The notes under the pieces are model-generated. The model was not told where the DNA came from. It made no database searches and was given only the letters and a program-made list of their open reading frames with translations. A DNA stretch of 64,000 nucleotides, from positions 590,228 through 654,227 of the forward strand of contig NZ_KQ758467.1 in the NCBI RefSeq assembly GCF_001456955.1. Reading direction: 5' to 3'. Shown here piece by piece: positions 5,856-20,540 of the stretch. Made by a program: the position numbers and the translations under genes. The first letter of the stretch is position 1. Each line of letters begins with the position of its first letter. Source of the DNA: Microbacterium enclense. GTDB taxonomy: Bacteria; Actinomycetota; Actinomycetes; Actinomycetales; Microbacteriaceae.

Positions 5856-5880
5856 CCGTGACGAATGTCACGGCCGTACG

Positions 5881-7050
5881 ATGGCCGGGGTGAGCACTCC
5901 CTCCGCCGCCACCTATGCCCGCGACGTGCGCGTCACGTGGTGGTACACCGTCGCCTCGGTCCTGTCGCTGCAGGTGTTCGGCCTCGCGATCTGGGCCGTG
6001 GCCGTCGTCGTGAACGACGCTCCGCTCGCCGTCGCGCTGTACCTGGTCGGCGCGGTCGGGTCGACGGCATCCGCCGTGCTTCTTCTCCTGCGGTACCGCC
6101 GGGAGCCGCTCGACGACGGCGACGCCCGTCACCCCGTCTGGCCGTCGCTCGTGCTCGGCATCGCGTCCGGATCCCTCGCCGGCGCGGCCGTCGGCTCGCT
6201 GCTGCTCGCGGTGGCCCTCGCCGCGCAGGCGCTGTGTCTGGTGCGGTGGCGGAACGGCATCCGCCTGCGCCTCGTGATGCTGCTGATCGTGGTCATCGTC
6301 GCCACGTGGATCATGGATGCCACCCGCCTGAACCCCGGTGGCTACGTCGCCGCGGTCTTCGGGCTCGCGCTGTTCGTGGCGATGCTTCCGCCGCTGTCGG
6401 CGACGTCGCTGTGGTGGTGGGACATCGTGCGCGAACTCGACCGCGCGCGCCGCGCCGAGGGACGTCTGGCCGCCGCGCAGGAGCGCCTGCGCCTCGCGAG
6501 CGACCTGCACGACCTGCAGGGCCACCACCTGCAGGTGATCGCCCTGCAGCTCGAGCTCGCCGAGAAGATGATGGGGCGCGATCCGGATGCCGCGGTCGAA
6601 CAGGTGCGGGCGGCCCGCGCCAGCGTCGACGAGGCGCGCCGGGGCACGCGCGATCTCGCCGCACGGTTCCGCGGGGTTCCGCTGCCCGACGAACTCGCCA
6701 ACGCCGCCGATCTGCTGCGCGCCGCGGGCCTGACCGTCGACCTGCTCGTCGACGCCGAGGCCGGCCGCGCGCCCGCCGACGTGCTCGGCCCGGTCGTCCG
6801 CGAGTCGACGACGAACGTGCTCAAACACGGCGGTGGGGGCTCGGCATCCCTCTCGCTCGCCCGCCACCGGGGAGCGTGGGTGCTGACGGTCGAGAACGAC
6901 GCGCGCGGCGCGGCCTCGCCCGTGGGCGACGGCGCGGGGCTCTCGGGCATCGCCGAGCGCGTCGGTACCGTCGGAGGAACGATGGATGCCACCCGCCTCG
7001 GCGACCGGTTCCGACTCACCGTCCACGTGCCCGAGGGGGTGACGGCATGA
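5881..7050 (+). CDS. sensor histidine kinase, DesK/NarX type
   Basis: Membrane kinase of 389 aa. Five or six hydrophobic segments (residues ~20-42, 48-70, 88-118, 130-146, 155-172) form a sensor without a clear extracellular domain, as in DesK, suggesting a membrane or lipid-linked cue. A coiled segment then leads to the HisKA_3 dimerisation box with phospho-accepting His210 (SDLHDLQGHHLQ) and a HATPase domain (VVRESTTNVLKHGGG; GDGAGLSGIAERVG). ATG 5881 is chosen, GTG 5890 is possible. The stop overlaps the response-regulator start (ATGA), so the pair is co-translated. Confidence 0.92.
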   Translation: MAGVSTPSAATYARDVRVTWWYTVASVLSLQVFGLAIWAVAVVVNDAPLAVALYLVGAVGSTASAVLLLLRYRREPLDDGDARHPVWPSLVLGIASGSLAGAAVGSLLLAVALAAQALCLVRWRNGIRLRLVMLLIVVIVATWIMDATRLNPGGYVAAVFGLALFVAMLPPLSATSLWWWDIVRELDRARRAEGRLAAAQERLRLASDLHDLQGHHLQVIALQLELAEKMMGRDPDAAVEQVRAARASVDEARRGTRDLAARFRGVPLPDELANAADLLRAAGLTVDLLVDAEAGRAPADVLGPVVRESTTNVLKHGGGGSASLSLARHRGAWVLTVENDARGAASPVGDGAGLSGIAERVGTVGGTMDATRLGDRFRLTVHVPEGVTA

Positions 7051-7649
7051 TCCGCGTGCTCATCGCCGACGACGAAGACATGATCCGTACCGCGCTCGCC
7101 GCCCTGCTGCGGCTCGAAGACGACCTCGACGTCGTCGCCGAGTGCCGCGACGGCGAGAGCGCGCTCGCCGAGGCCGAGCGCCTGCGGCCCGACGTCTGCC
7201 TGCTCGATCTCGAGATGCCCGGCCTCGACGGCGTCGACACGGCCGCGCGGATCCTCCGGCGCGTGCCCTCGCGCTGCGTCATCGTCACGCGCCACGCCCG
7301 ACCCGGCGTGCTGCGGCGCGCGCTCGGTGCGGGCGTCGACGGCTTCCTGCCGAAGTCACGGCCCGCGGATGACGTGGCCGCGGTGATCCGCGAGGTCGCC
7401 GCCGGGCGTCGCTACGTCGACCCCGAGATCGCCGCGGATGCCCTCAGCGATGAACGCAGTCCCCTCACCGACCGCGAGCTCGACGTGCTGCGCGCCGGTG
7501 CGCGCGGGGAGACGGTCGCCGAGATCGCCGCGATGCTGCACCTGTCGGCCGGGACGGTGCGCAACCACGTGTCGTCGGTGCTCGGCAAGCTCGGTCTCGC
7601 GAGCCGGCAGCAGGCGACGATCCACGCGCGCGAGCGGGGGTGGATCTGA
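7047..7649 (+). CDS. LuxR/NarL-family response regulator
   Basis: 200-aa partner of the preceding kinase. The receiver domain has the acidic pair Asp8/Asp9, phospho-acceptor Asp54 (LLDLEMPGLDG), a switch Thr near 81 and Lys103. The C-terminal LuxR-type helix-turn-helix begins LTDRELDVLRAGARGETVAEIAAMLHLSAGTVRNHVSSVLGKL, normal in length and residues. It should bind DNA as a phosphorylated dimer; its targets cannot be seen here, and no transporter or desaturase lies alongside. The start overlaps the kinase stop by four bases. Confidence 0.94.
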   Translation: MIRVLIADDEDMIRTALAALLRLEDDLDVVAECRDGESALAEAERLRPDVCLLDLEMPGLDGVDTAARILRRVPSRCVIVTRHARPGVLRRALGAGVDGFLPKSRPADDVAAVIREVAAGRRYVDPEIAADALSDERSPLTDRELDVLRAGARGETVAEIAAMLHLSAGTVRNHVSSVLGKLGLASRQQATIHARERGWI

Positions 7650-8628: not shown

Positions 8629-9066
8629 TCACGATGCCCAGCGCACGGCGTGCTGATAGTGCCCCCGCCCGAGGCGGGGGCGCGTGTACGTGACGCCTCT
8701 GACGCGGGCGAGATGGTTGTCTGCGAAGACGCGGAGCAATTTGATCGAAACTCCCAGCTCGTCTGCGATGGCCTCATCATCGAGGCCGATCGACTCGAGC
8801 TCGGCGAAAAGGACCGGATCGACCAGAACCGCGGCGGCGAAGGCGTCGGCCGCGGCCTCTGCATCGGGGTCGTCACGGCCCTGATGGCCGTAGAACGCAT
8901 GCCCCAGTTCGTGCGCCAGCACGCAGGCTCGTTCTATGGGAGTGAGCGAGAAGTCGTAGACGACCCGGCGTCGACCGTGGTCGTAGAAACCTCGGAAGGG
9001 CTCTGGCAGGTGGGCCACGTGAACGGAGACCTCGAGGCGCGCTGCCAGCGCGAGCAACTCCTTCAC
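8629..9066 (-). CDS. ImmA/IrrE family metallopeptidase
   Basis: 145-aa zinc peptidase-like protein: HELGH at residues 52-56 gives two zinc ligands and the catalytic Glu, with the third ligand probably in DPDAEAAADAF. ImmA/IrrE proteins typically inactivate a partner XRE repressor by cleavage, releasing operons in response to a signal. That partner is the gene just upstream (10-base gap), so this is a repressor/anti-repressor unit. GTG 9066 is chosen because AAGGAGAATCC sits right before it; a longer frame to 9117 would overlap the repressor gene. Confidence 0.88.
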   Translation of the reverse strand: MKELLALAARLEVSVHVAHLPEPFRGFYDHGRRRVVYDFSLTPIERACVLAHELGHAFYGHQGRDDPDAEAAADAFAAAVLVDPVLFAELESIGLDDEAIADELGVSIKLLRVFADNHLARVRGVTYTRPRLGRGHYQHAVRWAS

Positions 9067-9076
9067 GGATTCTCCT

Positions 9077-9499
9077 TCAGTCTGACGTCGGCCTTCGTTC
9101 ATCGGTGTTCGCGGCATCGCGCGCCGCGGGGGCGACGTGGCCGATATAGGTCACGTTGTCCGCGTCGTCGATGGTACGAGGGGCATCCGACACCGATGCG
9201 AGGAGCTTCCGCAGGCCGTCTTGAGGACCGCCTGGTCGATCGGGTTCGTGCGAGGCGTAGTCGCTGAGTGCCATGTCGACGATCTCCCGCGCGGGAACTC
9301 GGAGGACCGCAGCGATGCGCTCGAGTTCGGAAACCGTCGTCTCGTTCGCCCCGTCCTCTCGACGCTTGAGATTGGACAGGGCGATCCCCGTCTGGGTCGA
9401 GAGCACCTCGCGACTGACGTCTCTGCGCGCCCGTGCCGCGCGTATTGCTGCGCCGAGATGCCTGTCGAACGGGTGAGGCGTCTTCTTCGCGCGAACCAT
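9077..9499 (-). CDS. XRE-family transcriptional regulator
   Basis: 140-aa DNA-binding protein with an N-terminal Cro/C1-type helix-turn-helix (LGAAIRAARARRDVSREVLSTQTGIALSNLKRREDG...TVSELERIAAVL, residues ~16-68) and a C-terminal arm (residues ~75-140) that may be the site of ImmA cleavage. ATG 9499 is chosen; upstream in-frame codons fall into the promoter region. It is divergent from a small ORF and the polyketide operon, and an inverted repeat (TTGGC...GCCAA, 9543-9560) overlaps the -35 of that promoter, so repression of the rightward genes is a reasonable inference. Confidence 0.88.
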   Translation of the reverse strand: MVRAKKTPHPFDRHLGAAIRAARARRDVSREVLSTQTGIALSNLKRREDGANETTVSELERIAAVLRVPAREIVDMALSDYASHEPDRPGGPQDGLRKLLASVSDAPRTIDDADNVTYIGHVAPAARDAANTDERRPTSD

Positions 9500-9542
9500 G
9501 TGCCCAGCGTAGGTCAGCCCCTCACGGCTTCGACCGGGTGAA

Positions 9543-9577
9543 TTGGCTTTGAAAGGCCAAACATGACTGGTTAGCAT
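9543..9577 (+). promoter_or_regulatory. promoter with overlapping operator-like inverted repeat
   Basis: TTGAAA (9549-9554), a 17-base spacer and TAGCAT (9572-9577) form a good sigma-70-type promoter reading rightward. Arms TTGGC and GCCAA surround the -35 box, as expected for an XRE operator. Six bases separate the -10 from ATG 9584, so transcription would start at or next to that ATG (leaderless mRNA). The stretch is clearly more AT-rich than its surroundings. Confidence 0.6.
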
Positions 9578-9583
9578 CCATTC

Positions 9584-9793
9584 ATGGGCACGTCAGGTCG
9601 CAAGATCACCCGCGTAGACCTCGGCGCGGTCGATCGTGACCAGCGCGAACCGGAGCGTCGAGCGAACGACGTTTCTGTGCGCGAGTTCCTTACGGCTGGG
9701 GCGGAACGGGGGTTGACGACCGGCCAGATGTTTCCGGGTCACGCCGCGAGTGGCGCCCGGCCGCCCGAATCGGGTGCCCCATCGACACCGTGA
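9584..9793 (+). CDS. small hypothetical protein, apparently leaderless
   Basis: 69-codon ORF starting exactly where the 9549-9577 promoter should start transcription. The protein is polar and basic with a possible helix (VSVREFLTAGAERGLTTGQM); no family is recognised. It lies between the XRE/ImmA pair and the ABC/polyketide operon, with a 90-base gap to the latter. It could be a small regulatory protein, a partner of the repressor, or just the transcribed leader of the operon; codon use alone does not settle it. Confidence 0.4.
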   Translation: MGTSGRKITRVDLGAVDRDQREPERRANDVSVREFLTAGAERGLTTGQMFPGHAASGARPPESGAPSTP

Positions 9794-9883
9794 GGCGGCG
9801 GACGCCGACGTCTCGCGACTCCCGGAGAGACTGCTCGGCGGTGTCCCCGGTCCCATTCACCACACAGCAAGCAGGAGTAGTCC

Positions 9884-10783
9884 GTGTCTATCCAGGTGGA
9901 ACACCTCCGAAAGAGCTACGGCTCGCTCGAGGCCGTTCGCGATCTATCTTTCGACGTCCCCACGGGGTCGCTGTTCGCGTTCCTTGGGGCGAATGGTGCG
10001 GGCAAGAGCACGACGATCGGCTGCATCACGACAGTTCTCCGTCCGACTTCCGGTCGGATCCGCGTGCATGACCGTGACGCGGTAGATGACCCATACGGGG
10101 TACGCGGGGTCATCGGCGCCGTCTTTCAACAATCGCTTCTGGATCCATTGCTCTCCGTTCGCGAGAACCTGGCGACCCGGGCAGGCTTCTATGGACTCCG
10201 CAGGCGTGAAGCATCGGCGAGGATCGGCGAGCTGGCCGAATTGATCAACCTGGGAGACTTCCTCGACCGGCGCTACGGCGTGCTCTCCGGCGGCCAGAAG
10301 CGCCGGGCCGACATCGCGCGTGCGATCATCCACCGCCCCCGCGTCGTCTTCCTCGACGAGCCCACCGCGGGCCTCGACCCGCAGTCGCGGGAACAGATCT
10401 GGTCTGCAATCGACCAGCTCCGCGCAAACCATGCGACGACTGTTTTCCTGACTACTCACTACATGGAGGAGACCGAGCGGGCCGATCAGGTCTGCATCAT
10501 CGCGCGGGGCGAGATCGTCGCAGAGGGGAGTCCGGCACGACTCCGTTCCGCTTACAGTCGCAGCGTGCTCACCGTGAGCGCCTCCGACGTGGCATCCGTC
10601 CTCGCCGAGTGCGAAACGCGGGGCCTCGTCGCGGCACGATCCGGTGACCTCGTACGCGTACACGTCGACGACATCGAGCAGGCCCGGTCAGTCCTGGTCT
10701 CGCCGTGGGTCACGGACTTCGAATTCCGACACGGAACGATGGACGACGTCTTCCTCAACGTGACGGGGGGCCAGGCGGCATGA
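9884..10783 (+). CDS. ABC transporter ATP-binding protein (DrrA-like)
   Basis: 299-aa ATPase subunit of an ABC-2 exporter. Walker A GANGAGKST is near residue 37, the signature LSGGQKRRADIARA near 135, Walker B VVFLDEPTAGLD near 155 and the switch His in TTHYMEE near 188; a C-terminal extension with a small ferredoxin-like fold is typical of DrrA/CcmA-type drug or lipid exporters. GTG 9884 has a GGAG site upstream. The stop overlaps the permease start (ATGA). As first gene of the polyketide operon it probably exports the product. Confidence 0.93.
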   Translation: MSIQVEHLRKSYGSLEAVRDLSFDVPTGSLFAFLGANGAGKSTTIGCITTVLRPTSGRIRVHDRDAVDDPYGVRGVIGAVFQQSLLDPLLSVRENLATRAGFYGLRRREASARIGELAELINLGDFLDRRYGVLSGGQKRRADIARAIIHRPRVVFLDEPTAGLDPQSREQIWSAIDQLRANHATTVFLTTHYMEETERADQVCIIARGEIVAEGSPARLRSAYSRSVLTVSASDVASVLAECETRGLVAARSGDLVRVHVDDIEQARSVLVSPWVTDFEFRHGTMDDVFLNVTGGQAA

Positions 10784-11658
10784 GAACGATCGCGATTCTC
10801 ACCGGGCGGAATCTGCGCCTCTTCTTCCGAGACCGCGCAGGGGTGTTCTTCTCTCTCCTGTCGGCCCTCATTCTCATAGCGCTGTACGCGCTGTTCCTGG
10901 GCAACCTGCAGGTCGACAATCTGACCGAGCGCTTTCCGGACGCAGCGAGCAGCGACATCCACTGGTTCGTGAACGCGTGGGTCTTCGCCGGAATCACCAT
11001 GATCACGACACTGACGACGGCATTGGCCGCCTTGACGGTCTTCGTCGACGATCGCGCGAGCGGACGCTTCAGCGACTTCCTGGTCTCACCCATTCGCCGC
11101 GTCGAGCTGATCCTGGGCTACCTCTTGTCGAGCTTTCTCATCTCGCTCAGCATGACAGTGGTCATCCTCGCCGTGGGGCAGGTCTATCTGCTCACGCAGG
11201 GCAGTCCCATGATGACCGCGAGCGAGGCAGCAGAGACGCTCGGCTACGTCGCTCTTTCGAGCGTGGCGTTCGCCGCGCTGTCGAGCTTCGTGGTCACCTT
11301 TCTGCGCACCGCCGGCGCGTTCGCCGCGCTGTCGACCGTGGTGGGAACGGTCATCGGCTTCCTCGCCGGAGCGTACATCCCTGTCGGGACGCTCCCGGAC
11401 GGCATCGTGAATGGGATCAACGCGCTCCCCTTCGCGCAGTCGGCGATGCTGATCCGTACCCCCATGACCGCGCAGGCACTATCCGCGCTGGCTGGCGAAG
11501 AGGGGCAGGCGGCCGACGCGGTGAAGGCGTTTTACGGCATCTCGGCCCACGTCGGTGAATTCGAGGTCACTGCCGGCTTCGCCGTCGCAGTTCTGGTCGC
11601 GGTGTTCGTCGTCTTCGCGTCACTCGGGGCGCGTCAGCTCGCTCGCCGGATCCGCTGA
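10780..11658 (+). CDS. ABC-2 type transporter permease
   Basis: 292-aa integral membrane subunit with about six hydrophobic segments (residues ~20-42, 60-88, 105-135, 145-168, 172-190 and 262-282) and the ABC-2 motif DRASGRFSDFLVSPIRRVELILGYLLSSF before the central helices. It pairs with the preceding ATPase (4-base overlap) to form a DrrAB-like exporter; two copies of each are expected. The long loop between the last two helices (residues ~210-255) may face outward. Its stop shares one base with the downstream malonyltransferase start (TGATG), so translation is coupled to the biosynthetic genes. Confidence 0.9.
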   Translation: MRTIAILTGRNLRLFFRDRAGVFFSLLSALILIALYALFLGNLQVDNLTERFPDAASSDIHWFVNAWVFAGITMITTLTTALAALTVFVDDRASGRFSDFLVSPIRRVELILGYLLSSFLISLSMTVVILAVGQVYLLTQGSPMMTASEAAETLGYVALSSVAFAALSSFVVTFLRTAGAFAALSTVVGTVIGFLAGAYIPVGTLPDGIVNGINALPFAQSAMLIRTPMTAQALSALAGEEGQAADAVKAFYGISAHVGEFEVTAGFAVAVLVAVFVVFASLGARQLARRIR

Positions 11659-12566
11659 TGTCGGGGACTTTTCTCGCCGTGCCAGGGCAGGGTAGCCAGT
11701 CCCTCGGGATGGGAAGGCAGCTGGCCACCCGACATTCCGCCGCGCGGGCGGTTTTCGACGAAGCCGCGGACGCGCTCGGCTTCGATCTGCGCGACGTGAT
11801 GTGGGGTGATTCCGCCAGCCGACTGATGGCGACCGATCATGCTCAACCCGCCATCGTCCTCCTCGCCATCGCCGCCCTGCGAGCGTGGGACGCTTCGACG
11901 TCGTCCGCCCTCGACATCCGGTGGGCCGTGGGTCACAGTGTCGGATCGATCGCCGCGGCGATTGCCGCGGGGGCCCTCGCTTTCGCTGACGGGATGCGGC
12001 TCGCACGCACCCGGGGTCTCGTGATGAGTGCCGCTCCCGGACCGGGGGCGATGCTCGCGGTCGCGGTCACCTCTTCACACGCTCACGGAGACATCGCCCG
12101 CGTCGCCGCCGCGCTGGGGCTGGACATCGCATGCATCAACGGTCCTCGGCAGATCGTGCTCGCGGGACCCCGCGCGGGCATTCTCGAAGCGCGCACGACG
12201 TTCGGGGCGCGATCCCGACTCCTCGATGTGAGCCACGGCTTCCACTCCTCTCTGATGGACCCTGTCGCGCAGCGATGGGCACGGGAAGTGGCGACCACAC
12301 CATTCCGCGACCCTCGGGTGCCCTTGCTATCGGCGATCTCGGGGGAGCTCCTCCACACGGCCGAGCACATCGCCGAGGACGTCCGCCGGGGAGTTCGCGA
12401 GACCGTGAGGTGGGATCTGGTCACCGCGGTCGCACACGACAGCGGATGCTCAGCAGTCATCCTCGGTAATGGCCACACCCTGATTCGCTTCTGGCGGGGG
12501 GATGCCATCGCGGACGGGGCGATCGTCGTCGACGACGCTTTCCGTGGAGGCGTTCGTGCAGCCTGA
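11658..12566 (+). CDS. ACP S-malonyltransferase, pathway-specific
   Basis: 302-aa FabD-type acyltransferase that loads malonyl units from malonyl-CoA onto an acyl carrier protein. Seen: GQGSQ at residues 10-14, the nucleophile Ser94 in GHSVG, Arg119 in TRGLVM (carboxylate binding) and the catalytic His196 in HGFHSSLM. All key residues are present. The arrangement beside an ACP, KR, DH and KS-CLF marks it as part of a type II polyketide system rather than the housekeeping fab cluster, which would have fabH and acpP neighbours. ATG 11658 overlaps the permease stop by one base. Confidence 0.9.
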   Translation: MSGTFLAVPGQGSQSLGMGRQLATRHSAARAVFDEAADALGFDLRDVMWGDSASRLMATDHAQPAIVLLAIAALRAWDASTSSALDIRWAVGHSVGSIAAAIAAGALAFADGMRLARTRGLVMSAAPGPGAMLAVAVTSSHAHGDIARVAAALGLDIACINGPRQIVLAGPRAGILEARTTFGARSRLLDVSHGFHSSLMDPVAQRWAREVATTPFRDPRVPLLSAISGELLHTAEHIAEDVRRGVRETVRWDLVTAVAHDSGCSAVILGNGHTLIRFWRGDAIADGAIVVDDAFRGGVRAA

Positions 12567-13293
12567 CCGGAGCGTCGTCGTCACCGGCGGATCCCGAGGC
12601 ATCGGCCGGGCGTGCGTCGAGACTCTCGCCGACGCGGGATGGCATGTCATCGTGGTCTTTCGCCGAGCCGCCGACGAAGCCGCGGACGTCGTGCGCACCG
12701 TGACGGAGCGAGGGGGGTCCGCGTCGGCGGTGCAAGCCGATGTGGCATCCGAGACGCAGGTCCGCGACGTGTTCCGGGCCATGCGCGCTGAGCACCCCCG
12801 CCTGGCGGGGGTCGTGTCGAACGCCGGGATCACGCGTGACGGGCTGACACCGATGATGTCTCTCGCGACGTGGAACACCGTCGTCGAGACGAATCTCACA
12901 GCCTCGTTCCTCGTCGCCCGAGAGTCACTGAAAGCGATGCGCCGGACCGGGGGATCCCTCGTCTTCATGAGCTCGGTATCCGGCTTGCGCGGTCAGGTGG
13001 GACAGGCGAACTATGCCGCCAGTAAGGGCGCGGTGAACGCGATGACACGTTCACTGGCGCGCGAGGCCGCGGCGGTCGACATCCGCGTCAACGCGGTCGC
13101 ACCCGGGTTCACCGACACCGATATGGTCCGCCGGATGCCGCGCGGGGACCTCGAACGGCTCGTCGATGCCGTCCCGCTTCGACGGATGGCGCGGCCGCAT
13201 GAAGTGGCATCCCTGGTTCGCTTCCTTCTCAGCGATGACGCCTCGTACATCACCGGACAGACCATCTCGATCGACGGCGGATTGACCGCCTGA
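12556..13293 (+). CDS. 3-oxoacyl-ACP reductase (FabG-like ketoreductase)
   Basis: 245-aa short-chain dehydrogenase: NADP-binding TGGSRGIG at residues 10-17, NAG at 89-91, catalytic Ser140, Tyr153 and Lys157 (NYAASKGAV), and the C-terminal GQTISIDGG typical of FabG. It would reduce the beta-keto group after each elongation step. The frame is open further upstream, but GTG 12556 has GGAGG at correct spacing and starts 11 bases before the malonyltransferase stop. All residues for activity are present. No enoylreductase gene is nearby, so the chain should stay unsaturated after dehydration. Confidence 0.92.
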   Translation: MQPDRSVVVTGGSRGIGRACVETLADAGWHVIVVFRRAADEAADVVRTVTERGGSASAVQADVASETQVRDVFRAMRAEHPRLAGVVSNAGITRDGLTPMMSLATWNTVVETNLTASFLVARESLKAMRRTGGSLVFMSSVSGLRGQVGQANYAASKGAVNAMTRSLAREAAAVDIRVNAVAPGFTDTDMVRRMPRGDLERLVDAVPLRRMARPHEVASLVRFLLSDDASYITGQTISIDGGLTA

Positions 13294-13313
13294 GGCCCCT
13301 ACGGAGACGAAAC

Positions 13314-13598
13314 ATGGAATACCGAGAACTGGCGCAGCAGGCTGTCACCCGGCGCGAGTTGAACGACCGCGTCAAGGCGCTGATAGCCGAGGGGCTTGGG
13401 CTGCCCATCGACGCGAGCCTCATCGACGACGATCAGCCCCTCTTCGGGCGTGGACTCGAACTCGACTCGCTCGACACCCTCGAAATCGTGAGCCTGATCG
13501 ACGAGAACTTCGGCGTTTACATCACCGACGACGACAAATTCGTCTTCGGTTCGATCAACACCATCGCAGACTTCATCGAACAGGCGCGAGCGCGGTGA
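13314..13598 (+). CDS. acyl carrier protein
   Basis: 94-aa four-helix carrier. The phosphopantetheine attachment Ser52 lies in ELDSLDTLEIV, followed by acidic helix II and a LIDENFGVYI helix III region. The N-terminal 15 residues are longer than in housekeeping AcpP. It carries the growing chain for the KS-CLF, KR and DH enzymes around it and needs activation by a phosphopantetheinyl transferase such as the one at 19545. The stop overlaps the dehydratase start (GTGA). A clear ribosome site (GGAGACGAAAC) precedes ATG 13314. Confidence 0.92.
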   Translation: MEYRELAQQAVTRRELNDRVKALIAEGLGLPIDASLIDDDQPLFGRGLELDSLDTLEIVSLIDENFGVYITDDDKFVFGSINTIADFIEQARAR

Positions 13599-14041
13599 CC
13601 GGCCGACGAGGTGTCGCGCTCGCGTCTGCCGAGGTCGCGCGGCGACTCCCGCACCGGCACCCGTTCTTACTGCTGGATCGCGTCGATGATCTCGAGGTCG
13701 GTATCTCTGCGGTGGGCACGAAGAACGTATCCATCGCTGATCCGGTGTTCGCGGGCCATTTTCCGGGCAACCCGGTCTACCCCGGCGTTCACATGGTCGA
13801 AGTGGCGGCACAGCTCTGCGGTTTGATCGGTTCCTCCGACGAGCCGGAGCCCGTCCTGGGGTATCTGGCATCGATCAAGCGGTTCAAGTTCGTCGCGGTA
13901 GTCGTCCCGGGTGATCAGATGAGAATCTCGGCGCGAGCCGGAGCGTCCATCGGCGCGCTGACCGAGTTCGCCGTCGAGATCACTGTCGCCGGCCGAGTCG
14001 TGGCGAGCGGCGTTCTCGCCATCGCCCGCGCCCGAAGGTGA
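13595..14041 (+). CDS. 3-hydroxyacyl-ACP dehydratase (FabZ-like)
   Basis: 148-aa hot-dog fold dehydratase. The FabZ signature is intact: LPHRHPFLLLDRV at residues 18-30 and GHFPGNPVYPGVHMVE at 54-69 with catalytic His55 and Glu69. It removes water from 3-hydroxyacyl-ACP, giving a trans double bond. Together with the adjacent ketoreductase and no enoylreductase, repeated cycles would build a conjugated polyene. GTG 13595 overlaps the acp stop by four bases. Confidence 0.93.
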   Translation: MTGRRGVALASAEVARRLPHRHPFLLLDRVDDLEVGISAVGTKNVSIADPVFAGHFPGNPVYPGVHMVEVAAQLCGLIGSSDEPEPVLGYLASIKRFKFVAVVVPGDQMRISARAGASIGALTEFAVEITVAGRVVASGVLAIARARR

Positions 14042-14050
14042 GAGCGTCGT

Positions 14051-16096
14051 ATGTCCGCAGAGATCCGTGAACTCACCGGCGAAGACGACCTCGGGCGAGT
14101 TGCTGACTTCTTCATCCGGAATCACTACGGCCCTACGGGCGTGGTCCTGTCAGGACACGCGCTCGAACGCGTGTTTCGCGAGCGTGGTGTTCGCCTCTTC
14201 CTCGTCGCAGAGGAACGGGGCGAAATCGTCGCAACCATCGGATACGCGACCATGTCGGGCCGCCGGGTGGCCCCACCGGGTCAACTCTTCGCCGGGATGT
14301 TCGTGATCGCGCCGAGCCACCGCACGGGGATGCTGGCGGGGCGTCTCTTCTCCGATTCCTTCGAACGACTGGTCGCCCGCGGGATTCGCGGTCTTCGCGT
14401 CGAGGTCGACCCGGCGAACTCTCGGGCTTTCCCGCTCTACGTCAGGGTGGGATTCAGAGCCCTCGAGGGAATGACCCCGGACGAGGACGGCTATGTCGAG
14501 CTCGTCAGTGTCCTTCCGGGGGTGACGACCGATCTGTCGAACAACGCCGTCGCCTGGACCGGTCGGTCCCTCAGCGGCGACAGGCGCAACTGGCGATCGA
14601 TCCGCCGCTCACGGACGCAATCCGTCGACAGCGGGATCGTCCGGCTCCCTGGGTGCGGTGATGCGATCCGATATGACTTCGAGCTCCCCGGCCTCCTCGT
14701 CTCGGCGGTCGGACGTGTCGACGATGCCGCGCTCGTGACGCTCTCCGTGAACGGCTCCGCCGCGCCGGGATTCCCGCCGCCCGGCGACTGCGAGCAAGCG
14801 CATCCAGCCCGAATCGTAGTGTCGAGGGCGCTCGGGCTCTTCACGGTGACGCTCGACGAACGTGGCACGCTCGTCGTTTCGCACCCCGGGCACCTCGGCT
14901 CTGTCGTCGTCGATCCACATCCGGTCGCATCGGGCGGAACCGCGGGCCCGCGACGACCCTCCTCCCGTCCTCTTCACGTGGATGCCGCCGACGAGATGTG
15001 GCGAATCGACGACGGAGACGTGGAGCGCGTGGTGGAATTCCTCCCCGCGGGAGTGCGAGTGACGGCGATGAGTCGGAGCGCGAGCGAAGTCGTCTGCTTC
15101 CCCTGGATGGGACTACGCGTCGCACGTCTCGCGCTGTCGCTCGAGGGCGTCGAGGCGCGCGCCGCACACGCTGTGCGCGGACGCTGGCCTGTCGATCTGG
15201 TCGACTTCGAGGCATCCGCCGACGGGGAGAGTTCGTGGCCGGCAGCGGGGACCGAGGTCGTCTGGAGTGACGGTGCATCCGGCGTCACGATCGCCGCCAC
15301 GCGGCTTCGTGCGGAGAAGGCGCGCCTCGAGGGATGGCACTTCGTGCGCCTCTCGGGCGAGACGAGCGTGGGATACGACCTCTCGGTGTCGTCATCCGGG
15401 TGTTCATCGCGGGTCCGCAACGGACGCGGTGGGCGAGTGATCGACACGTGGTGGCGCTCGCGACGAGCGCTGGCCGATGTCCTCCAGACGACAACGGATG
15501 CCGGAACACTCATCGTCGCGCCAGAGGCGGGTCTCGTGGAATGGCGTCGTGACGGTCGCCCGGTAGTGTGCTCGTCCTTCCCTTCCCGGCGGGCGATCGG
15601 CCCGCTCACGACGGTGTCAACAGCGCTCTGGGCGTGCGCAGAGCCGGATCGTACGGACCTCGACCTGGGCGCTGCATGGCCGACCGACGACGCCCGGCTC
15701 CCGTTCCAGCCGAGTGGCGACACCCAGGGTGCGGGGTGGTCGTTGACCTCGTTCGACTCGCCGAGCGAGCTCGGCGTGCGGGTGATCGCGATCGCCGAGG
15801 AGCGCAGACTGGAGGCGGTCGTCTTTCTGGCGCTCGCCAGGGCCACTCGCGTCAGAATCGCGGATTCCGACGGCGGGGTGCTCGAACTCGACGTCTCGCC
15901 GGACCCGTGGCGCACATGGACGCGCGCAGCCAGCTTCTTCATGGACGGCGGCTGGCTCCACTTGACGTCCGTCCGCGGCATACACCCCGAGATCTTGATT
16001 CGTTCTACCGCGCAGGGCCTGATGGTCGCCGCCTACTCGCGACTCGCCTCAGAGCCCACGACGACGGTCTGGAGCGTCCGATGGGACGCCCTCTGA
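14051..16096 (+). CDS. two-part protein: GNAT domain plus ~500-aa unknown region
   Basis: 681 aa. Residues ~1-165 form a GNAT acyltransferase (IRELTGEDDLGRVADFFIRN; GMFVIAPSHRTGMLAGRLF is the acyl-CoA loop; VDPANSRAFPLYVRVGF closes the fold). The rest matches no family I know: it is rich in predicted beta strands, Val, Arg and Asp, with no transmembrane helix, and has Trp-containing repeats of SDG-type turns (VVWSDGASGVTIAATRL; RIADSDGGVLELDV). In place it may transfer the polyketide acyl chain from ACP to an amine or sugar, with the beta-rich part binding the acceptor. ATG 14051 lies 9 bases after the dehydratase stop. The function is inferred from context only. Confidence 0.75.
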   Translation: MSAEIRELTGEDDLGRVADFFIRNHYGPTGVVLSGHALERVFRERGVRLFLVAEERGEIVATIGYATMSGRRVAPPGQLFAGMFVIAPSHRTGMLAGRLFSDSFERLVARGIRGLRVEVDPANSRAFPLYVRVGFRALEGMTPDEDGYVELVSVLPGVTTDLSNNAVAWTGRSLSGDRRNWRSIRRSRTQSVDSGIVRLPGCGDAIRYDFELPGLLVSAVGRVDDAALVTLSVNGSAAPGFPPPGDCEQAHPARIVVSRALGLFTVTLDERGTLVVSHPGHLGSVVVDPHPVASGGTAGPRRPSSRPLHVDAADEMWRIDDGDVERVVEFLPAGVRVTAMSRSASEVVCFPWMGLRVARLALSLEGVEARAAHAVRGRWPVDLVDFEASADGESSWPAAGTEVVWSDGASGVTIAATRLRAEKARLEGWHFVRLSGETSVGYDLSVSSSGCSSRVRNGRGGRVIDTWWRSRRALADVLQTTTDAGTLIVAPEAGLVEWRRDGRPVVCSSFPSRRAIGPLTTVSTALWACAEPDRTDLDLGAAWPTDDARLPFQPSGDTQGAGWSLTSFDSPSELGVRVIAIAEERRLEAVVFLALARATRVRIADSDGGVLELDVSPDPWRTWTRAASFFMDGGWLHLTSVRGIHPEILIRSTAQGLMVAAYSRLASEPTTTVWSVRWDAL

Positions 16097-16154
16097 CGCC
16101 GTCGTCCCCTTCCACGACCCACGCAACCCGACCGATGATCATCTAAGGAGACCG

Positions 16155-17135
16155 ATGTCCACGAACTCGGAGTATCACGCACTTCGTCGATCCGCCGGCG
16201 TCTACGCGCGCGGCACGAGCATTCATTCGATCGGCGGCGCAGGTCGTGAGGCCCTCCTGTCTCACGTCATCGCCCGGCCCACAGAATTCGCGCAGCCAGG
16301 ATCGGTCGTCGATTCGCTCGTGCTCGACGACGCCGGCCGTGTCATGGACTTCGTGCTCGCCGTCGTCGACGAAGACCGCACTCTCGTGATCTCGGAGAAC
16401 AGCAAGAGTGCCACCTCCGACATGAAGGCGGTTGCGATCGCACTCGGCATGCGCGACGTGACCATCGACGCCCTTCCAGGATGGGGAGCAATTGCCGTCG
16501 AGGGTCCCCGCGCGTGGGAGGTCGTGCGCGGTCTGATCGCGGACGACATCGCGAGCCTGCTATTAAACGAATGGCAGTCCGTGGAGATCCCCGGGGCTTC
16601 GTTCGCGCTCCTCGCGCGCACCGGCACCACGGCCGAGTACGGGTACGTCGTGGTCGCAGACGTCGCCTCGGACGTTCTCATCGACAGCCTCCGGTCACCC
16701 CTCGAAGACGTGGATGGTGCCCTCGTCGGTCCGCCGGCCCTTCAGCGCGCGCGGATCGAAGTCAACCACCCGGTGGTACCCGACCAGTTCACCGGCGTCA
16801 CCGCGCTCGAGGCGGGGGCCGGGTGGGCCGCGGGTATCGGTCGAGAAGACTCATACCGGGGGGCCGGTCACGCTGAGCGGACGCATCGTCGCCTGGTCGC
16901 CATTCGATCAACGCGTCCCCTCGAGAGCGGACGCACCGTCGAGGCGGGCGGGGTGACGGTCGGTCGCGTCCACCTCTGCGCGGCCGAGATCGACGGCGAG
17001 ACCAGCTATGCGCTGGCGTTGCTCGACGCACCCTTCGACGTGCCGGGACTCGAGCTCGCCGTCGATGGCGAGACGGTGAGAACCGTCTCGCGACCGGCGG
17101 TCCAGCCCGTGTCCTGGACCGAGCCGATCGGATGA
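16155..17135 (+). CDS. GcvT/YgfZ-like folate-binding protein
   Basis: 326-aa protein with the two-part fold of aminomethyltransferases (GcvT) and YgfZ: start YHALRRSAGVYARGTSIHSIGGAGREALLSHVIA, central LPGWGAIAVEGPRAWEVV, and LEAGAGWAAG plus a C-terminal barrel (VGRVHLCAAEIDGETSYALALL). It lacks the KGCYxGQE motif of YgfZ, and no glycine-cleavage genes are nearby, so a tetrahydrofolate-dependent one-carbon step or a purely structural role in the polyketide pathway is more likely than glycine cleavage. ATG 16155 has an AAGGAG site. Its stop overlaps the ketosynthase start (ATGA). Confidence 0.8.
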   Translation: MSTNSEYHALRRSAGVYARGTSIHSIGGAGREALLSHVIARPTEFAQPGSVVDSLVLDDAGRVMDFVLAVVDEDRTLVISENSKSATSDMKAVAIALGMRDVTIDALPGWGAIAVEGPRAWEVVRGLIADDIASLLLNEWQSVEIPGASFALLARTGTTAEYGYVVVADVASDVLIDSLRSPLEDVDGALVGPPALQRARIEVNHPVVPDQFTGVTALEAGAGWAAGIGREDSYRGAGHAERTHRRLVAIRSTRPLESGRTVEAGGVTVGRVHLCAAEIDGETSYALALLDAPFDVPGLELAVDGETVRTVSRPAVQPVSWTEPIG

Positions 17136-19534
17136 CCCGCTCCGATGTCGCTGTGACCGGCGTCGGGTTACTGGCGGCGGTCGGTCTCGACGCGCGAGAC
17201 AGCTGGAACGCCATCAGACGGGGCTCCTCGGGCATCTCCCGGGTGACGTCGGTCGATGCCAGCGGGTTCATCTCGCAACTCGCGGGGGAACTGCCGGGCG
17301 GAGCCGACTGGAAGGGTGCGGCGCCCCGTCGAGAGGGGAAGGGGATGGTCGACCGATGCCACGCCATGGCCTTGGATGCCACCACCGAGGCGATGGCAAG
17401 CGCCCGGCTCGGGGCGGAGGAGTACTCACTGGACCGTGTCGGCATCTCATTCGGGACATCGTTGGGCGGCGCGCGCTCCGGCGAATCCTTCCATCGCCAG
17501 TGGCTCGAGCAGGGGTTGCGCCGCGCGGATGCGAGCCTTCTCCGCCAGTACCCCCTGCACTCGGTCGCGGATGACATCGCCGAGCAATTCGGCTTCACCG
17601 GGCCGCGCACCGTGCAGTCGAATGCGTGCGCCGCGGGTGCCGTCGCCATCGCCTACGGCGTGGAACTCATCGAGAGCGGGCATGCCGACGTCGTCATCGC
17701 GGGAGGAGTCGATCCCCTCGCGTACTTCTCCTTCGGTGGGTTCTCGTGCCTGGAGGCGCTGGACCCCCTGCATTGCGCCCCCTACACGCGCAGCAGCGGA
17801 CTCAACCTCGGCGAGGGCGCGGGTGTCGTCGTGCTCGAGAAGCGGGCCGCAGCCCACGCTCGCGGCATCCCCGTTCTCGCTGTCGTCCGTGGGTACGGCC
17901 TCAGCGCGGACGCGCATCACCCCACGGCGCCGGATCCGACCGGACGGGGGGCGTTGCGCGCGATGAAGGCCGCGCTCGACATGGGCGGGCTGGCGCCCGA
18001 CGATGTGGACTACGTGAACGGGCACGGCACCGGAACCCCGGCGAACGACAGCACGGAAACGCGGGCCGTCGCTCAGCTCTGTCCGGCAGCCCCGCCTCCC
18101 CTCAGTTCGACCAAGTCGATGATCGGGCACACGCTCGGTGCGGCCGGAGCGGTGGAAGCCGTCACAACGGTGCTCGCGCTTCGCGACGGCGTGCTCCCGC
18201 CGACGGTCGTTCCGCCGGATGCGATGGATGCGCCGCACGGCCTCGATATCGTCCCCGCCGCCGGGAGAACGGGCACCGTGGAGGTGGCCCTGTCGAACTC
18301 TTTCGCCTTCGGGGGCAACAACGCGTCCCTTCTGCTCACCCGTGACGCCTCCACGGCACAGCGGGAGCGGTCCGATCCGACGGGGCGGGCCGTGCTGATC
18401 ACCGGCGCCGCGGCCATCGCGGCCGACGCGAAGGACTCCGACGACGTGCGGGCTGCTCTTCGGGCCTGGACACCGGCGTACGGCGCGCGACACGTCACGC
18501 TGGACGGATACGGTGACTTTCCTGTCGCCGAGATTCCCGAGAAGCACCTCACCCGCGGCGTGAATCCACAGATGCTGCGCCGAATCGACAACCTCGGACG
18601 CCGTGCCGCCGTGGTCGCTGCGGACCTGCTGCGCGAGCGCAAGCTGAGCCGAGAGGAAGCCTCTCGAACGGGTCTCATCTTCGCCACGGGGACCGGCCCG
18701 CTGTCGACGGTGGAGGCTTTTCAGCGCGAACTCGTCCGAACGGGTTCCGGCAACACGAGACTCTTCCCCAACACCGTCATGAATGCGGCCGGCGGTCACG
18801 TCGCACTGCTCAACCGGCTACAGGGGCCCACAGCGACGATCTGCGCGGGTGGGACCTCCGGCATCACAGCCCTGCACTTCGCGACCCGACTGATTCAGCG
18901 CGGCGCTGCCGACCGAGTCGTCGTGCTGTCGGCTGACGAGGCGCCCGTGGCGATGCTGGCCGCGCACGCTCGCATTCCCGGCTTCCTCTCGCGCGAGCGC
19001 TGTCTGCCGTTCCAGGATTCGGGCAAGGTCTTCGGTGGAGCCGGCGTCGCTCTGCTTCTGGAGGCAGCCGAGGCGGCCCCGCCAGGGAGGACGATGGGAC
19101 GCATCGAGGGATTCGGCATGACCGGCGACACGAGCGGCCCCGGGCGCCTCGACCCCTCGAGCGACGGCTGGTTACGAGCGTTCCAGGAAGCCCTGATCAA
19201 CGCCGAGGTCACCCCGCGCGGCGTGGACCTCGTCGTGTCCGCTGCGTGCGGTCGCGCGGCGATCGACAACATTGAGGCGGCGGCCCTGCGGGACGCGGGT
19301 CTGGGCGCGGCCGTCGTGTCAGCCCCGAAAGAGATCTTCGGCGACGCGGGATCGTCGTCGGCGCTGCTGGGCGTCGTGCAGGCGCTCTGGATGGGCCGAG
19401 AGGCGGATGCCGACACCTTCGGTCGCACAGTGTCGGAGCGCCGGATCCGTCCGACCTTCCGGAGTGCGCTCGTGTCTTCGTACGAAGTGGGGGGCAGCTA
19501 TCAGTCCGTCGTGGTTCGAGCTCACGACGCCTGA
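17132..19534 (+). CDS. fused ketosynthase / chain-length factor (type II PKS)
   Basis: 800 aa with two thiolase-fold halves. The N-terminal half (about 1-405) is an active ketosynthase: Cys166 in SNACAAGA, His298 in NGHGTGTPANDS, Lys328 and His333 in KSMIGHTLGAAGAVEA, GGNNASL near 396. The C-terminal half (about 418-797) keeps the fold (GPTATICAGGTSG; FGGAGVALLLE), but the two catalytic His positions read ACGRAA and KEIFGDAGSS, so it is a chain-length-factor-like, non-condensing partner. In type II systems KS and CLF are normally separate proteins that heterodimerise; here one chain carries both. It should elongate malonyl units on the ACP at 13314. Confidence 0.9.
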   Translation: MTRSDVAVTGVGLLAAVGLDARDSWNAIRRGSSGISRVTSVDASGFISQLAGELPGGADWKGAAPRREGKGMVDRCHAMALDATTEAMASARLGAEEYSLDRVGISFGTSLGGARSGESFHRQWLEQGLRRADASLLRQYPLHSVADDIAEQFGFTGPRTVQSNACAAGAVAIAYGVELIESGHADVVIAGGVDPLAYFSFGGFSCLEALDPLHCAPYTRSSGLNLGEGAGVVVLEKRAAAHARGIPVLAVVRGYGLSADAHHPTAPDPTGRGALRAMKAALDMGGLAPDDVDYVNGHGTGTPANDSTETRAVAQLCPAAPPPLSSTKSMIGHTLGAAGAVEAVTTVLALRDGVLPPTVVPPDAMDAPHGLDIVPAAGRTGTVEVALSNSFAFGGNNASLLLTRDASTAQRERSDPTGRAVLITGAAAIAADAKDSDDVRAALRAWTPAYGARHVTLDGYGDFPVAEIPEKHLTRGVNPQMLRRIDNLGRRAAVVAADLLRERKLSREEASRTGLIFATGTGPLSTVEAFQRELVRTGSGNTRLFPNTVMNAAGGHVALLNRLQGPTATICAGGTSGITALHFATRLIQRGAADRVVVLSADEAPVAMLAAHARIPGFLSRERCLPFQDSGKVFGGAGVALLLEAAEAAPPGRTMGRIEGFGMTGDTSGPGRLDPSSDGWLRAFQEALINAEVTPRGVDLVVSAACGRAAIDNIEAAALRDAGLGAAVVSAPKEIFGDAGSSSALLGVVQALWMGREADADTFGRTVSERRIRPTFRSALVSSYEVGGSYQSVVVRAHDA

Positions 19535-19544
19535 AGGCCTGGCG

Positions 19545-20096
19545 GTGGCGGTGTGGTCCGTGACGATTTCGTCGTCTGCGACCGACACGCTCGGAAGAGC
19601 TCTCGACCCGTCCGCGACGCAGGTCCTGCGGCGCATCGTCGAGGCGACTTCGTGCGCTCGCGGAGGTCACTGCCGGCCATCGGGGACGAGCACCGGACGC
19701 TGGGTGTGTCCCGGGTGCGCCGCTCACTGGAGCACGGCGGCGACTCCCGGGCGGGCCATGGTGAGCCGATCGGACATCCCGTGCGGCATCGACGTCGAGT
19801 GGGCGTCCCGTCATCGACCCGCCGCGTTCCGAGCTGCAGGCAGGTGGTGTGGAACACCGGTTCGGAGTGCGCGCCAGTGGACTCAGGCCGAGGCGATCTG
19901 GAAGGCGGCACGTCCCGCCCCGCGGCTCGGATCGGATCTCATCCCGATACCGACGTCGACCGGCGAGGGGTGGCAGTTGAGCGCCGACTCATCGTGGTGG
20001 GTCTACTCGCCAGCAGTGGACGGCGATTTCGTCTGGACGGTGGCTGTCGCGCGACAGACCCCTCGACGCGCGTCCGGCGGTCGGCCCTCGTGCTGA
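19545..20096 (+). CDS. 4'-phosphopantetheinyl transferase (Sfp type)
   Basis: About 183 aa. The Sfp-family metal/CoA motif GIDVEW and the second motif RQWTQAEAIWKA (W-T-x-x-E-A-x-x-K-A) are intact, and a Cys/His-rich region (RCARGGHCRPSG-like) resembles actinobacterial members. It would attach the phosphopantetheine arm to Ser52 of the pathway ACP. The spacing between the two motifs is short for the family, so a compact form is possible. GTG 19545 is preferred (GAAGG upstream, 10 bases after the KS-CLF stop); GTG 19551 is equally allowed. Confidence 0.8.
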   Translation: MAVWSVTISSSATDTLGRALDPSATQVLRRIVEATSCARGGHCRPSGTSTGRWVCPGCAAHWSTAATPGRAMVSRSDIPCGIDVEWASRHRPAAFRAAGRWCGTPVRSARQWTQAEAIWKAARPAPRLGSDLIPIPTSTGEGWQLSADSSWWVYSPAVDGDFVWTVAVARQTPRRASGGRPSC

Positions 20097-20195
20097 CCCT
20101 CGTGTCGGTCGTGATGACGTGCCGCGCGCGAAGGCATGAAGGCGGCGACCCGAGCGAGGAACCCGCGCCGGCCCGTCGAGCACTGGCCGAGGCCG

Positions 20196-20540
20196 ATGCC
20201 GGCTCCCAAGCGTCACCGCATGGGCGAGACGGCGACAGAAGACGCAGGACTCACGCGCTCCCTCATCATCGGTGTCGTCGTCGGCACGATCGCCGGCCCC
20301 GTCCTCGGCCTGCTCGTGCCCTCGATCGGCGTCGGCTGCGGCATCTCGATCGGGTTGATGGTCGGCATCCTGGGCGCCGTCACCACGTGGTTCGTGGTGC
20401 GTCCAAAGAAGGAGCGTCCGGCACGAGCACCAGGCGCCCGACGAAACGGCCAGCGGTGCGCGGCAGGTCGCCCGCTTCCATGCGGCGATGGGCCTCGGCG
20501 GCATCCGCGAATCCGCGCACCTGACCGACGTGAGCGGTGA
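20196..20540 (+). CDS. small hypothetical membrane protein, 3' end overlapping next gene
   Basis: 114-aa ORF with a clear hydrophobic stretch at residues ~20-62 (LTRSLIIGVVVGTIAGPVLGLLVPSIGVGCGISIGLM...), rich in Gly and probably two membrane helices, followed by RPKKERPAR. The C-terminal ~48 residues are Arg/Pro-rich and lie opposite the end of the convergent oxidoreductase gene (161-base overlap), so the real protein may end near 20430 and the present stop may result from a frameshift. ATG 20196 or ATG 20220. It could be the last gene of the polyketide operon. Confidence 0.5.
   Translation: MPAPKRHRMGETATEDAGLTRSLIIGVVVGTIAGPVLGLLVPSIGVGCGISIGLMVGILGAVTTWFVVRPKKERPARAPGARRNGQRCAAGRPLPCGDGPRRHPRIRAPDRRER

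What the first reader, a model, noticed from the sequence alone, without database searches (positions are those of the whole stretch)
9584..20096. Compact highly reducing type II polyketide operon with its own exporter
Seen: a nearly gapless operon coding for DrrAB-like exporter, malonyltransferase, ketoreductase, ACP, FabZ-type dehydratase, a 681-aa GNAT protein, a GcvT-like protein, a fused KS-CLF and a phosphopantetheinyl transferase. Known: KS-CLF plus KR plus DH with no enoylreductase is how aryl polyenes and related conjugated chains are made. Inference: this makes an exported polyene acyl conjugate, joined by the GNAT protein to an amine. There is no fatty acid or aryl starter ligase, no thioesterase and no cyclase, and the gene set does not match a cluster I know.
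Basis: partly seen in the sequence, partly recalled or inferred. Interest (0 to 1): 0.85.

Follow-up and report, generated by a model that had tools for sequence, protein, structure and literature searches.

The report
Sugarless granadaene-type polyene operon, exporter hotspot
This likely Microbacterium genome carries a ten-gene relative of the operon behind granadaene, the red, blood-cell-bursting pigment of group B Streptococcus, without the likely sugar-adding gene that some relatives have; it is predicted to make and pump out a polyene joined to an amino acid, and three genomes of the same genus carry only the pump genes at the same spot.

Summary
The genes are as described, but the set is known: it is a cyl-type operon, the family that makes the ornithine-rhamno-polyene granadaene in group B Streptococcus and Acidipropionibacterium. 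Order: cylA-cylB-AT-KR-ACP-DH-cylE-cylF-KS/CLF-PPTase. Five relatives carry DUF6365, a likely glycosyltransferase, between cylE and cylF; this operon and five others do not. The KS active site is intact and the CLF half has Gly at the Cys position. Best reading: iterative KS/KR/DH synthesis of a conjugated polyene, transfer to an amino acid by CylE, export by CylAB, no operon-encoded sugar step. New points: (1) the operon sits in a variable slot before sucCD, and 3 of 83 searched genomes of the genus hold only cylA-cylB there, inside the operon's exporter clade, perhaps a retained immunity pump; (2) CylF lacks the T-protein Asp96 equivalent in 13 of 13 sequences and accompanies KS/CLF in three clusters without CylE, against its published role in ornithine supply. 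Verdict: new variant of a known kind, moderately interesting. Product, amino acid and activity are untested.

The parts
9532..9591 (+). conserved intergenic block, possible promoter/operator shared with the divergent XRE gene
   Evidence: 49 of 61 columns identical to the same place in L015; holds the only promoter-like match of 9400-20400, TTGAAA-17-TAGCAT at 9549-9577 (1 found, 0.5 expected by shuffling, so weak)
9884..10783 (+). cylA-type ABC exporter ATPase (DrrA-like)
   Evidence: Walker A, signature and Walker B motifs kept
10780..11658 (+). cylB-type ABC-2 permease
   Evidence: 4-nt overlap with cylA; orthologues
11658..12566 (+). FabD-type malonyl transferase (CylD counterpart)
   Evidence: PF00698 over cut-off, TIGR00128 below cut-off; GHSVG motif
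12556..13293 (+). FabG-type ketoreductase (CylG); start inferred from where relatives' matches begin (ORF opens at 12502)
   Evidence: TGGSRGIG and YAASK kept
13314..13598 (+). acyl carrier protein (AcpC)
   Evidence: PF00550; DSL serine motif
13595..14041 (+). FabZ-type dehydratase (CylZ)
   Evidence: PF07977, NF000582 over cut-off
14051..16096 (+). CylE-type N-acyltransferase, 681 aa: GNAT domain (about 1-157) plus predicted all-beta C-terminal part
16155..17135 (+). CylF-type GcvT-fold protein without the T-protein Asp96 equivalent
   Evidence: PF01571
17132..19534 (+). fused ketosynthase - chain length factor (CylI/H counterpart)
19545..20096 (+). likely CylK-type phosphopantetheinyl transferase with four invariant Cys; start codon inferred
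   Evidence: GIDVE and WTQAEAIWKA motifs, four Cys invariant in the 7 aligned sequences; no family hit

Best explanation
The locus is a ten-gene cyl-type (granadaene-family) operon that lacks the DUF6365 gene, a likely glycosyltransferase, found between cylE and cylF in five of its relatives, and it is predicted to build a conjugated polyene acid, likely join it to an amino acid and would then export it. Inferred working order: the PPTase-like protein arms the ACP, the FabD-like enzyme loads malonate, the KS-CLF elongates, and KR and FabZ turn each new unit into a double bond because no enoylreductase is present. CylE then transfers the chain from the ACP to an amine, ornithine by analogy with granadaene, and CylAB pumps the product to the cell surface. 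With no sugar step in the operon, the far end of the chain would stay a free hydroxyl or plain end. CylF probably serves the synthase complex rather than ornithine supply. Shown here: gene content, order, conservation, active-site residues, distribution and tree position. Inferred: every chemical step, the product, its amino acid and its activity.
For: Families and motifs of the genes. Identical ten-gene order in L015, L017 and L028, and the same order with a DUF6365 gene between cylE and cylF in L019, L021 and L022; L029 and L030 show the same from AT or cylB to KS-CLF, without a PPTase match. Published gene set and pathway of the cyl operon (PMC6985545 sections 7-8) and of granadaene-making Acidipropionibacterium (PMC6920887 section 3.2). 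KS-CLF is 46% identical to those of A. jensenii and A. virtanenii and lies with them in a 19-row group, SH-aLRT 100. KS residues intact, and no Cys at the active-site position of the CLF half in 121 sequences, the query and the 120 best of 2151 hits. No DUF6365 match over cut-off in the window's genome. CylE model: confident GNAT domain.
Against: No product is known to me for any close relative. Granadaene itself carries rhamnose, and a sugar could be added by an enzyme encoded elsewhere in the genome; only DUF6365 was looked for. The absence of a gene between cylE and cylF is not unique: among 11 operons with CylE, CylF and KS-CLF, 5 have DUF6365 and 6 do not, so loss and never-having-had-it are both open. 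The DUF6365 model is poor (pLDDT 58), so its GT-B matches are only suggestive. The PPTase-like protein has Ala where Agreia and L028 have the His of the first motif and has no family hit. No direct comparison with streptococcal CylE was made.
Confidence: 0.78

Rival explanations
1. It makes fully glycosylated granadaene, the sugar being added by a glycosyltransferase encoded elsewhere in the genome.
For: Granadaene makers in the same KS-CLF group; published cyl operons use several unrelated glycosyltransferases.
Against: Nothing lies between cylE and cylF, where five relatives place DUF6365; no DUF6365 over cut-off in the genome. Other glycosyltransferase families were not scanned.
Confidence: 0.12
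2. It makes a different conjugate: another amino acid or polyamine, or a shorter chain, because CylE and CLF have diverged.
For: CylE is only 32-37% identical to those of the Agreia operons and KS-CLF 46% to granadaene makers, and chain length and amine cannot be read from sequence here.
Against: The gene order and active sites are conserved across the compared operons.
Confidence: 0.35
3. An aryl polyene or an ishigamide-type highly reducing type II polyketide.
For: Same KS-CLF/KR/DH logic; 6kxd (ishigamide KS-CLF, name recalled) is among the PDB matches.
Against: No aryl starter genes and no second KS in the operon, KS and CLF fused; CylE and CylF are present.
Confidence: 0.03
4. A silent or decaying operon without a product.
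For: It is rare: CylE in 4 of 366 genomes of the genus, and three genomes of the genus have only the exporter.
Against: All ten frames are open and catalytic residues kept, and L015 holds a copy with all ten genes at 67-88% protein identity.
Confidence: 0.05

Closest known systems
cyl operon of Streptococcus agalactiae (granadaene)
   Same: Same functional set: CylA/B exporter, malonyl transferase, CylG, AcpC, CylZ, CylE, CylF, CylI/H, CylK (PMC6985545, sections 7-8 read)
   Different: FabD-type transferase instead of CylD; exporter genes first (streptococcal order recalled); no CylJ or other glycosyltransferase gene in the operon
cyl-like cluster of Acidipropionibacterium jensenii / A. virtanenii (granadaene, haemolytic)
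   Same: Nearest producers of known product in my comparison; KS-CLF 46% identical, one supported group
   Different: Separate subgroup of the tree; the full gene order of that cluster was not compared here
   Same: Same order and homologous genes
   Different: They carry DUF6365 between cylE and cylF
Priestia megaterium plasmid cluster (L077)
   Same: AT-KR-ACP-DH-GcvT-KS/CLF in the same order
   Different: No CylE match in the 22-kb stretch, though a 132-aa GNAT gene is annotated upstream; no exporter pair annotated there, but a thioesterase and MFS transporters
Aryl polyene clusters
   Same: KS-CLF, KR, DH and ACP make a polyene
   Different: Aryl starter genes and a second KS (features recalled), neither present in this operon

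Membership tests
cyl operon family (seven-gene core of PMC6985545) | CylE: GNAT-type N-acyltransferase, universal in cyl operons | tested here: met
   681 aa, GNAT domain at the N terminus, conserved in syntenic operons. Not compared with streptococcal CylE itself
cyl operon family (seven-gene core of PMC6985545) | CylF: GcvT-like protein | tested here: met
   PF01571; T-protein structures matched
cyl operon family (seven-gene core of PMC6985545) | CylH/I ketosynthase, grouping with known producers | tested here: met
cyl operon family (seven-gene core of PMC6985545) | CylG ketoreductase, AcpC, CylZ dehydratase | tested here: met
   (family level)
cyl operon family (seven-gene core of PMC6985545) | CylA exporter ATPase (with one of several permeases) | tested here: met
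   groups with exporters of CylE-bearing operons, 100/100
cyl operon family | PPTase (CylK) or ACP synthase (replaceable) | tested here: inconclusive
   motifs only; no family hit
Granadaene producer (ornithine rhamno-polyene) | glycosyltransferase (CylJ or a replacement) in the operon | tested here: not met
   no gene between cylE and cylF, and the ten genes of 9884-20096 are otherwise accounted for; the operon is therefore not filed as a granadaene producer
Granadaene producer (ornithine rhamno-polyene) | product is a C28 dodecaene joined to ornithine | not testable with these tools
   needs MS/NMR
Aryl polyene clusters | aryl starter genes and a second ketosynthase (recalled) | tested here: not met
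   none in the operon
Ishigamide-type HR type II PKS | separate KS and CLF genes (recalled) | tested here: not met
   one fused 800-aa protein

The most novel reading that the evidence does not exclude
The operon is a toxin-and-immunity cassette: its polyene is an antibacterial weapon and CylAB is the self-protection pump. In three non-producing species of the genus the ten-gene operon has shrunk to cylA-cylB at the very same chromosomal slot, kept as immunity against producing neighbours, as orphan bacteriocin immunity genes are.
Probability: 0.28. Interest if true: 0.75.

Novelty: new variant of a known kind. Interest (0 to 1): 0.52.

Why it matters
It places a family known for a virulence lipid in an environmental genus in a form without an operon-encoded sugar step, so what the sugar contributes can be studied with natural molecules. 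The orphan exporters give a ready test of what such lipids are for in non-pathogens (weapon, photoprotection or membrane lipid). The CylF data bear on an open question, the role of the conserved CylF: absence of the T-protein Asp96 equivalent and presence in clusters without CylE argue for a place in the polyene synthase rather than in making ornithine.

Tried and rejected
Aryl polyene, ishigamide-type and cispentacin-type readings: considered because NCBIfam gave cispentacin hits (AmcB, AmcE, AmcF, all below cut-off); rejected because CylE and CylF are present, the KS-CLF is fused and it groups with cyl operons. The 69-aa ORF at 9584 as a CylX counterpart: rejected because its conserved peptide also sits next to an XRE/ImmA pair in L047, which has no cyl operon. 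Remnants of biosynthetic genes beside the orphan exporters: the stretches around cylAB in L046 and L056 (E up to 10) and in L074 (E up to 1) gave only chance-level matches, best E 0.045; over the whole of these three loci only cylA and cylB of the ten proteins match at E 1e-3. Plasmid carriage: all 45 plasmid records with a KS-CLF relative are under 60% identical, the 20 listed at 32-39%. DUF6365 as a glycosyltransferase: a sequence profile against the PDB found nothing useful; only Foldseek on a low-confidence model points to GT-B, and UDP-GlcNAc 2-epimerases match about as well. DUF6365 was not listed for Acidipropionibacterium among the 24 hits, so the known producers may use another enzyme. 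PPTase profile against the PDB: no PPTase match, only weak matches (E 0.07 and worse), most of them zinc-ribbon ribosomal proteins around the four Cys. No search was made for other glycosyltransferase families in the genome, nor for ornithine or rhamnose supply genes.

Full report
WHAT IS THERE. The window lies in a 3.67-Mb genome of 15 contigs. Ten + strand genes run from 9884 to 20096 with overlaps or short gaps. Pfam and NCBIfam name the ABC ATPase, permease, FabD-type transferase, FabG, ACP, FabZ, GNAT, GcvT and FabF-type ketosynthase. GC is 0.677 in the operon against 0.713 in the rest of the window, and GC3 is 0.77-0.84 against 0.92-0.96 in sucC and sucD, which fits a laterally acquired block.

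WHICH FAMILY. The set matches the cyl operon. PMC6985545 (abstract, sections 7 and 8 and passages read; [quoted passage not shown] PMC6920887 (abstract, section 3.2 and passages) ties the cluster to granadaene and haemolysis in Acidipropionibacterium. The window's KS-CLF is 46% identical to those of A. jensenii and A. virtanenii and lies with them in a 19-row group with SH-aLRT 100 (quick tree of 31 rows, no bootstrap, two long rows L043 and L044). Its nearest row is P0038, a protein named Microbacterium testaceum, 92% identical. The main text of PMC6985545 does not mention Microbacterium, Leifsonia or Arthrobacter, and a full-text search for granadaene, cylE and Microbacterium together found 0 papers. 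The other listings (40 of 61 papers, 16 of 16, 20 of 38, 10 of 135) showed no paper that by title and abstract describes it in this genus; PMC6787268 holds 'Microbacterium testaceum', polyketide and hemolytic but not granadaene, and was not read. Supplements and figures could not be read.

THE MISSING GENE. Eleven operons with CylE, CylF and KS-CLF were compared: window, L015, L017, L019, L021, L022, L028, L029, L030, L031, L042 (L032, L033 and L076 are second copies of L021, L015 and L019 and were not counted). Five (L019, L021, L022, L029, L030) carry a DUF6365 gene between cylE and cylF (four scanned, all five matched); six do not. In a database search, 10 of 24 DUF6365 proteins have a longest contig of exactly the same length as one of the 120 listed KS-CLF proteins, including P0180 with P0052, a KS-CLF 62% identical to the window's; so DUF6365 is a cyl-linked gene and probably also present close to the window's group. 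Its poor model (pLDDT 58) matches GT-B glycosyltransferases and the GT-B-fold UDP-GlcNAc 2-epimerases. The window genome has no DUF6365 above cut-off (best E 0.138). I read the window type as sugarless; whether by loss or by descent is open, since the two outer operons L031 and L042 also lack it. Glycosyltransferases of other families near those operons were not scanned.

RARITY AND SITE. CylE is found in 4 of 366 genomes of the genus: the window and G426 with the full operon, and G638 and G614 with a different arrangement. KS-CLF was found in 8 of 299 genomes of the family at E 1e-60, two of them matching only the KS half, in 2 of 396 of the order and in 5 of 394 of the class at E 1e-100, the window's own genome counted each time. 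The operon sits between a LuxR/response-regulator gene (5865-7649) and sucC (21617). I fetched 12 of the 57 other sucC neighbourhoods found and added L015, L016 and L020. Between that regulator gene and sucC lie: the full operon (L015); cylA-cylB alone (L046, L056); another island of about 8 kb (L047); 2.4 kb (L048); about 110 bp (L049). In L016 and L020 a different polyene cluster ending in cylA-cylB-cylE lies upstream of ASCH-RidA-sucC, the regulator gene not being in the stretch. In L050-L055 and L057 the regulator gene was not found in the fetched stretch (L051 is only 2.8 kb).

ORPHAN EXPORTERS. A CylB search of 83 genomes of the genus gave 16 matches: the window; three at 72-84% identity (G616, G575, G643) without any CylE match; G614 at 66% with the other cluster; and 11 at 46-51%. 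All three orphans have cylA next to cylB upstream of sucC and downstream of the regulator gene, with no N runs, and no other operon gene in the locus at E 1e-3. G616 is 86% complete, but both flanks are on the contig. In the CylA+CylB tree of 18 loci the orphans fall with the window and L015 (100/99), inside the exporter clade (100/100) whose outer members all lie in loci with CylE. Branching within the five is not resolved (84/85 at best), and one origin of the orphan state is not ruled out. Loss of the biosynthetic genes with retention of the pump is the simpler history; repeated gain is not excluded. No remnants were seen. Why a pump should be kept alone is open; immunity is my proposal.

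CYLF. PMC6985545 proposes that CylF makes ammonia for ornithine. Against it: the position of Asp96 of T. maritima T-protein (1woo; species and catalytic role recalled) is D in 0 of 13 CylF sequences, Phe in the window, although the Asp before it is kept in 5 of 13; and three clusters have CylF beside KS-CLF without CylE: L043 and L044 (no CylE match in 20 kb) and the Priestia megaterium plasmid cluster L077 (annotation; no CylE match at E 1 in 22 kb). L043 and L044 are long branches, so they are distant kin. CylF more likely serves the synthase; how is unknown.

MECHANISM. By the published pathway and passages on granadaene structure (PMC7083881; PMC6498181): malonyl-ACP extension with KR and DH each round, then amide formation by CylE, then export. 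The sugar step has no gene here. Whether such an aglycone is haemolytic cannot be told from these data.

Noticed in passing
L016 273-12031 and L020 (M. testaceum NBRC 12675 and an uncultured Microbacterium): Upstream of the same sucC a different cluster: FAD oxidoreductase, a KS scoring barely over cut-off, KR, FabA/Z, ABC genes, FMN reductase and an RPE65-type carotenoid-cleaving oxygenase (PF03055, E 8e-106; L016 scanned) next to cylA-cylB-cylE. A polyene-cleaving enzyme beside a polyene acyltransferase would be a new tailoring idea.
   Followed up: partly
window 8629-9577 (-) and 9584-9793 (+): XRE regulator and ImmA-like peptidase pair with a divergent 69-aa protein; the peptide VREFLxxGAxRGxTTxxMFP recurs in L015 and in L047, beside the same XRE/ImmA pair. 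It looks like a separate three-gene module with a possible ImmA target.
   Followed up: partly
window 19545-20096: PPTase-like protein with four invariant Cys resembling a zinc ribbon, without a hit in Pfam or NCBIfam.
   Followed up: partly
window 14636-16093 (CylE residues 196-681): Confident all-beta C-terminal region of CylE without any assigned family; its fold was not searched on its own.
   Followed up: no
L074 5359-5430: A second copy of the last 24 residues of RidA lies at the 3' end of the orphan cylA-cylB in G643, perhaps a trace of rearrangement in the slot.
   Followed up: no
   Followed up: no
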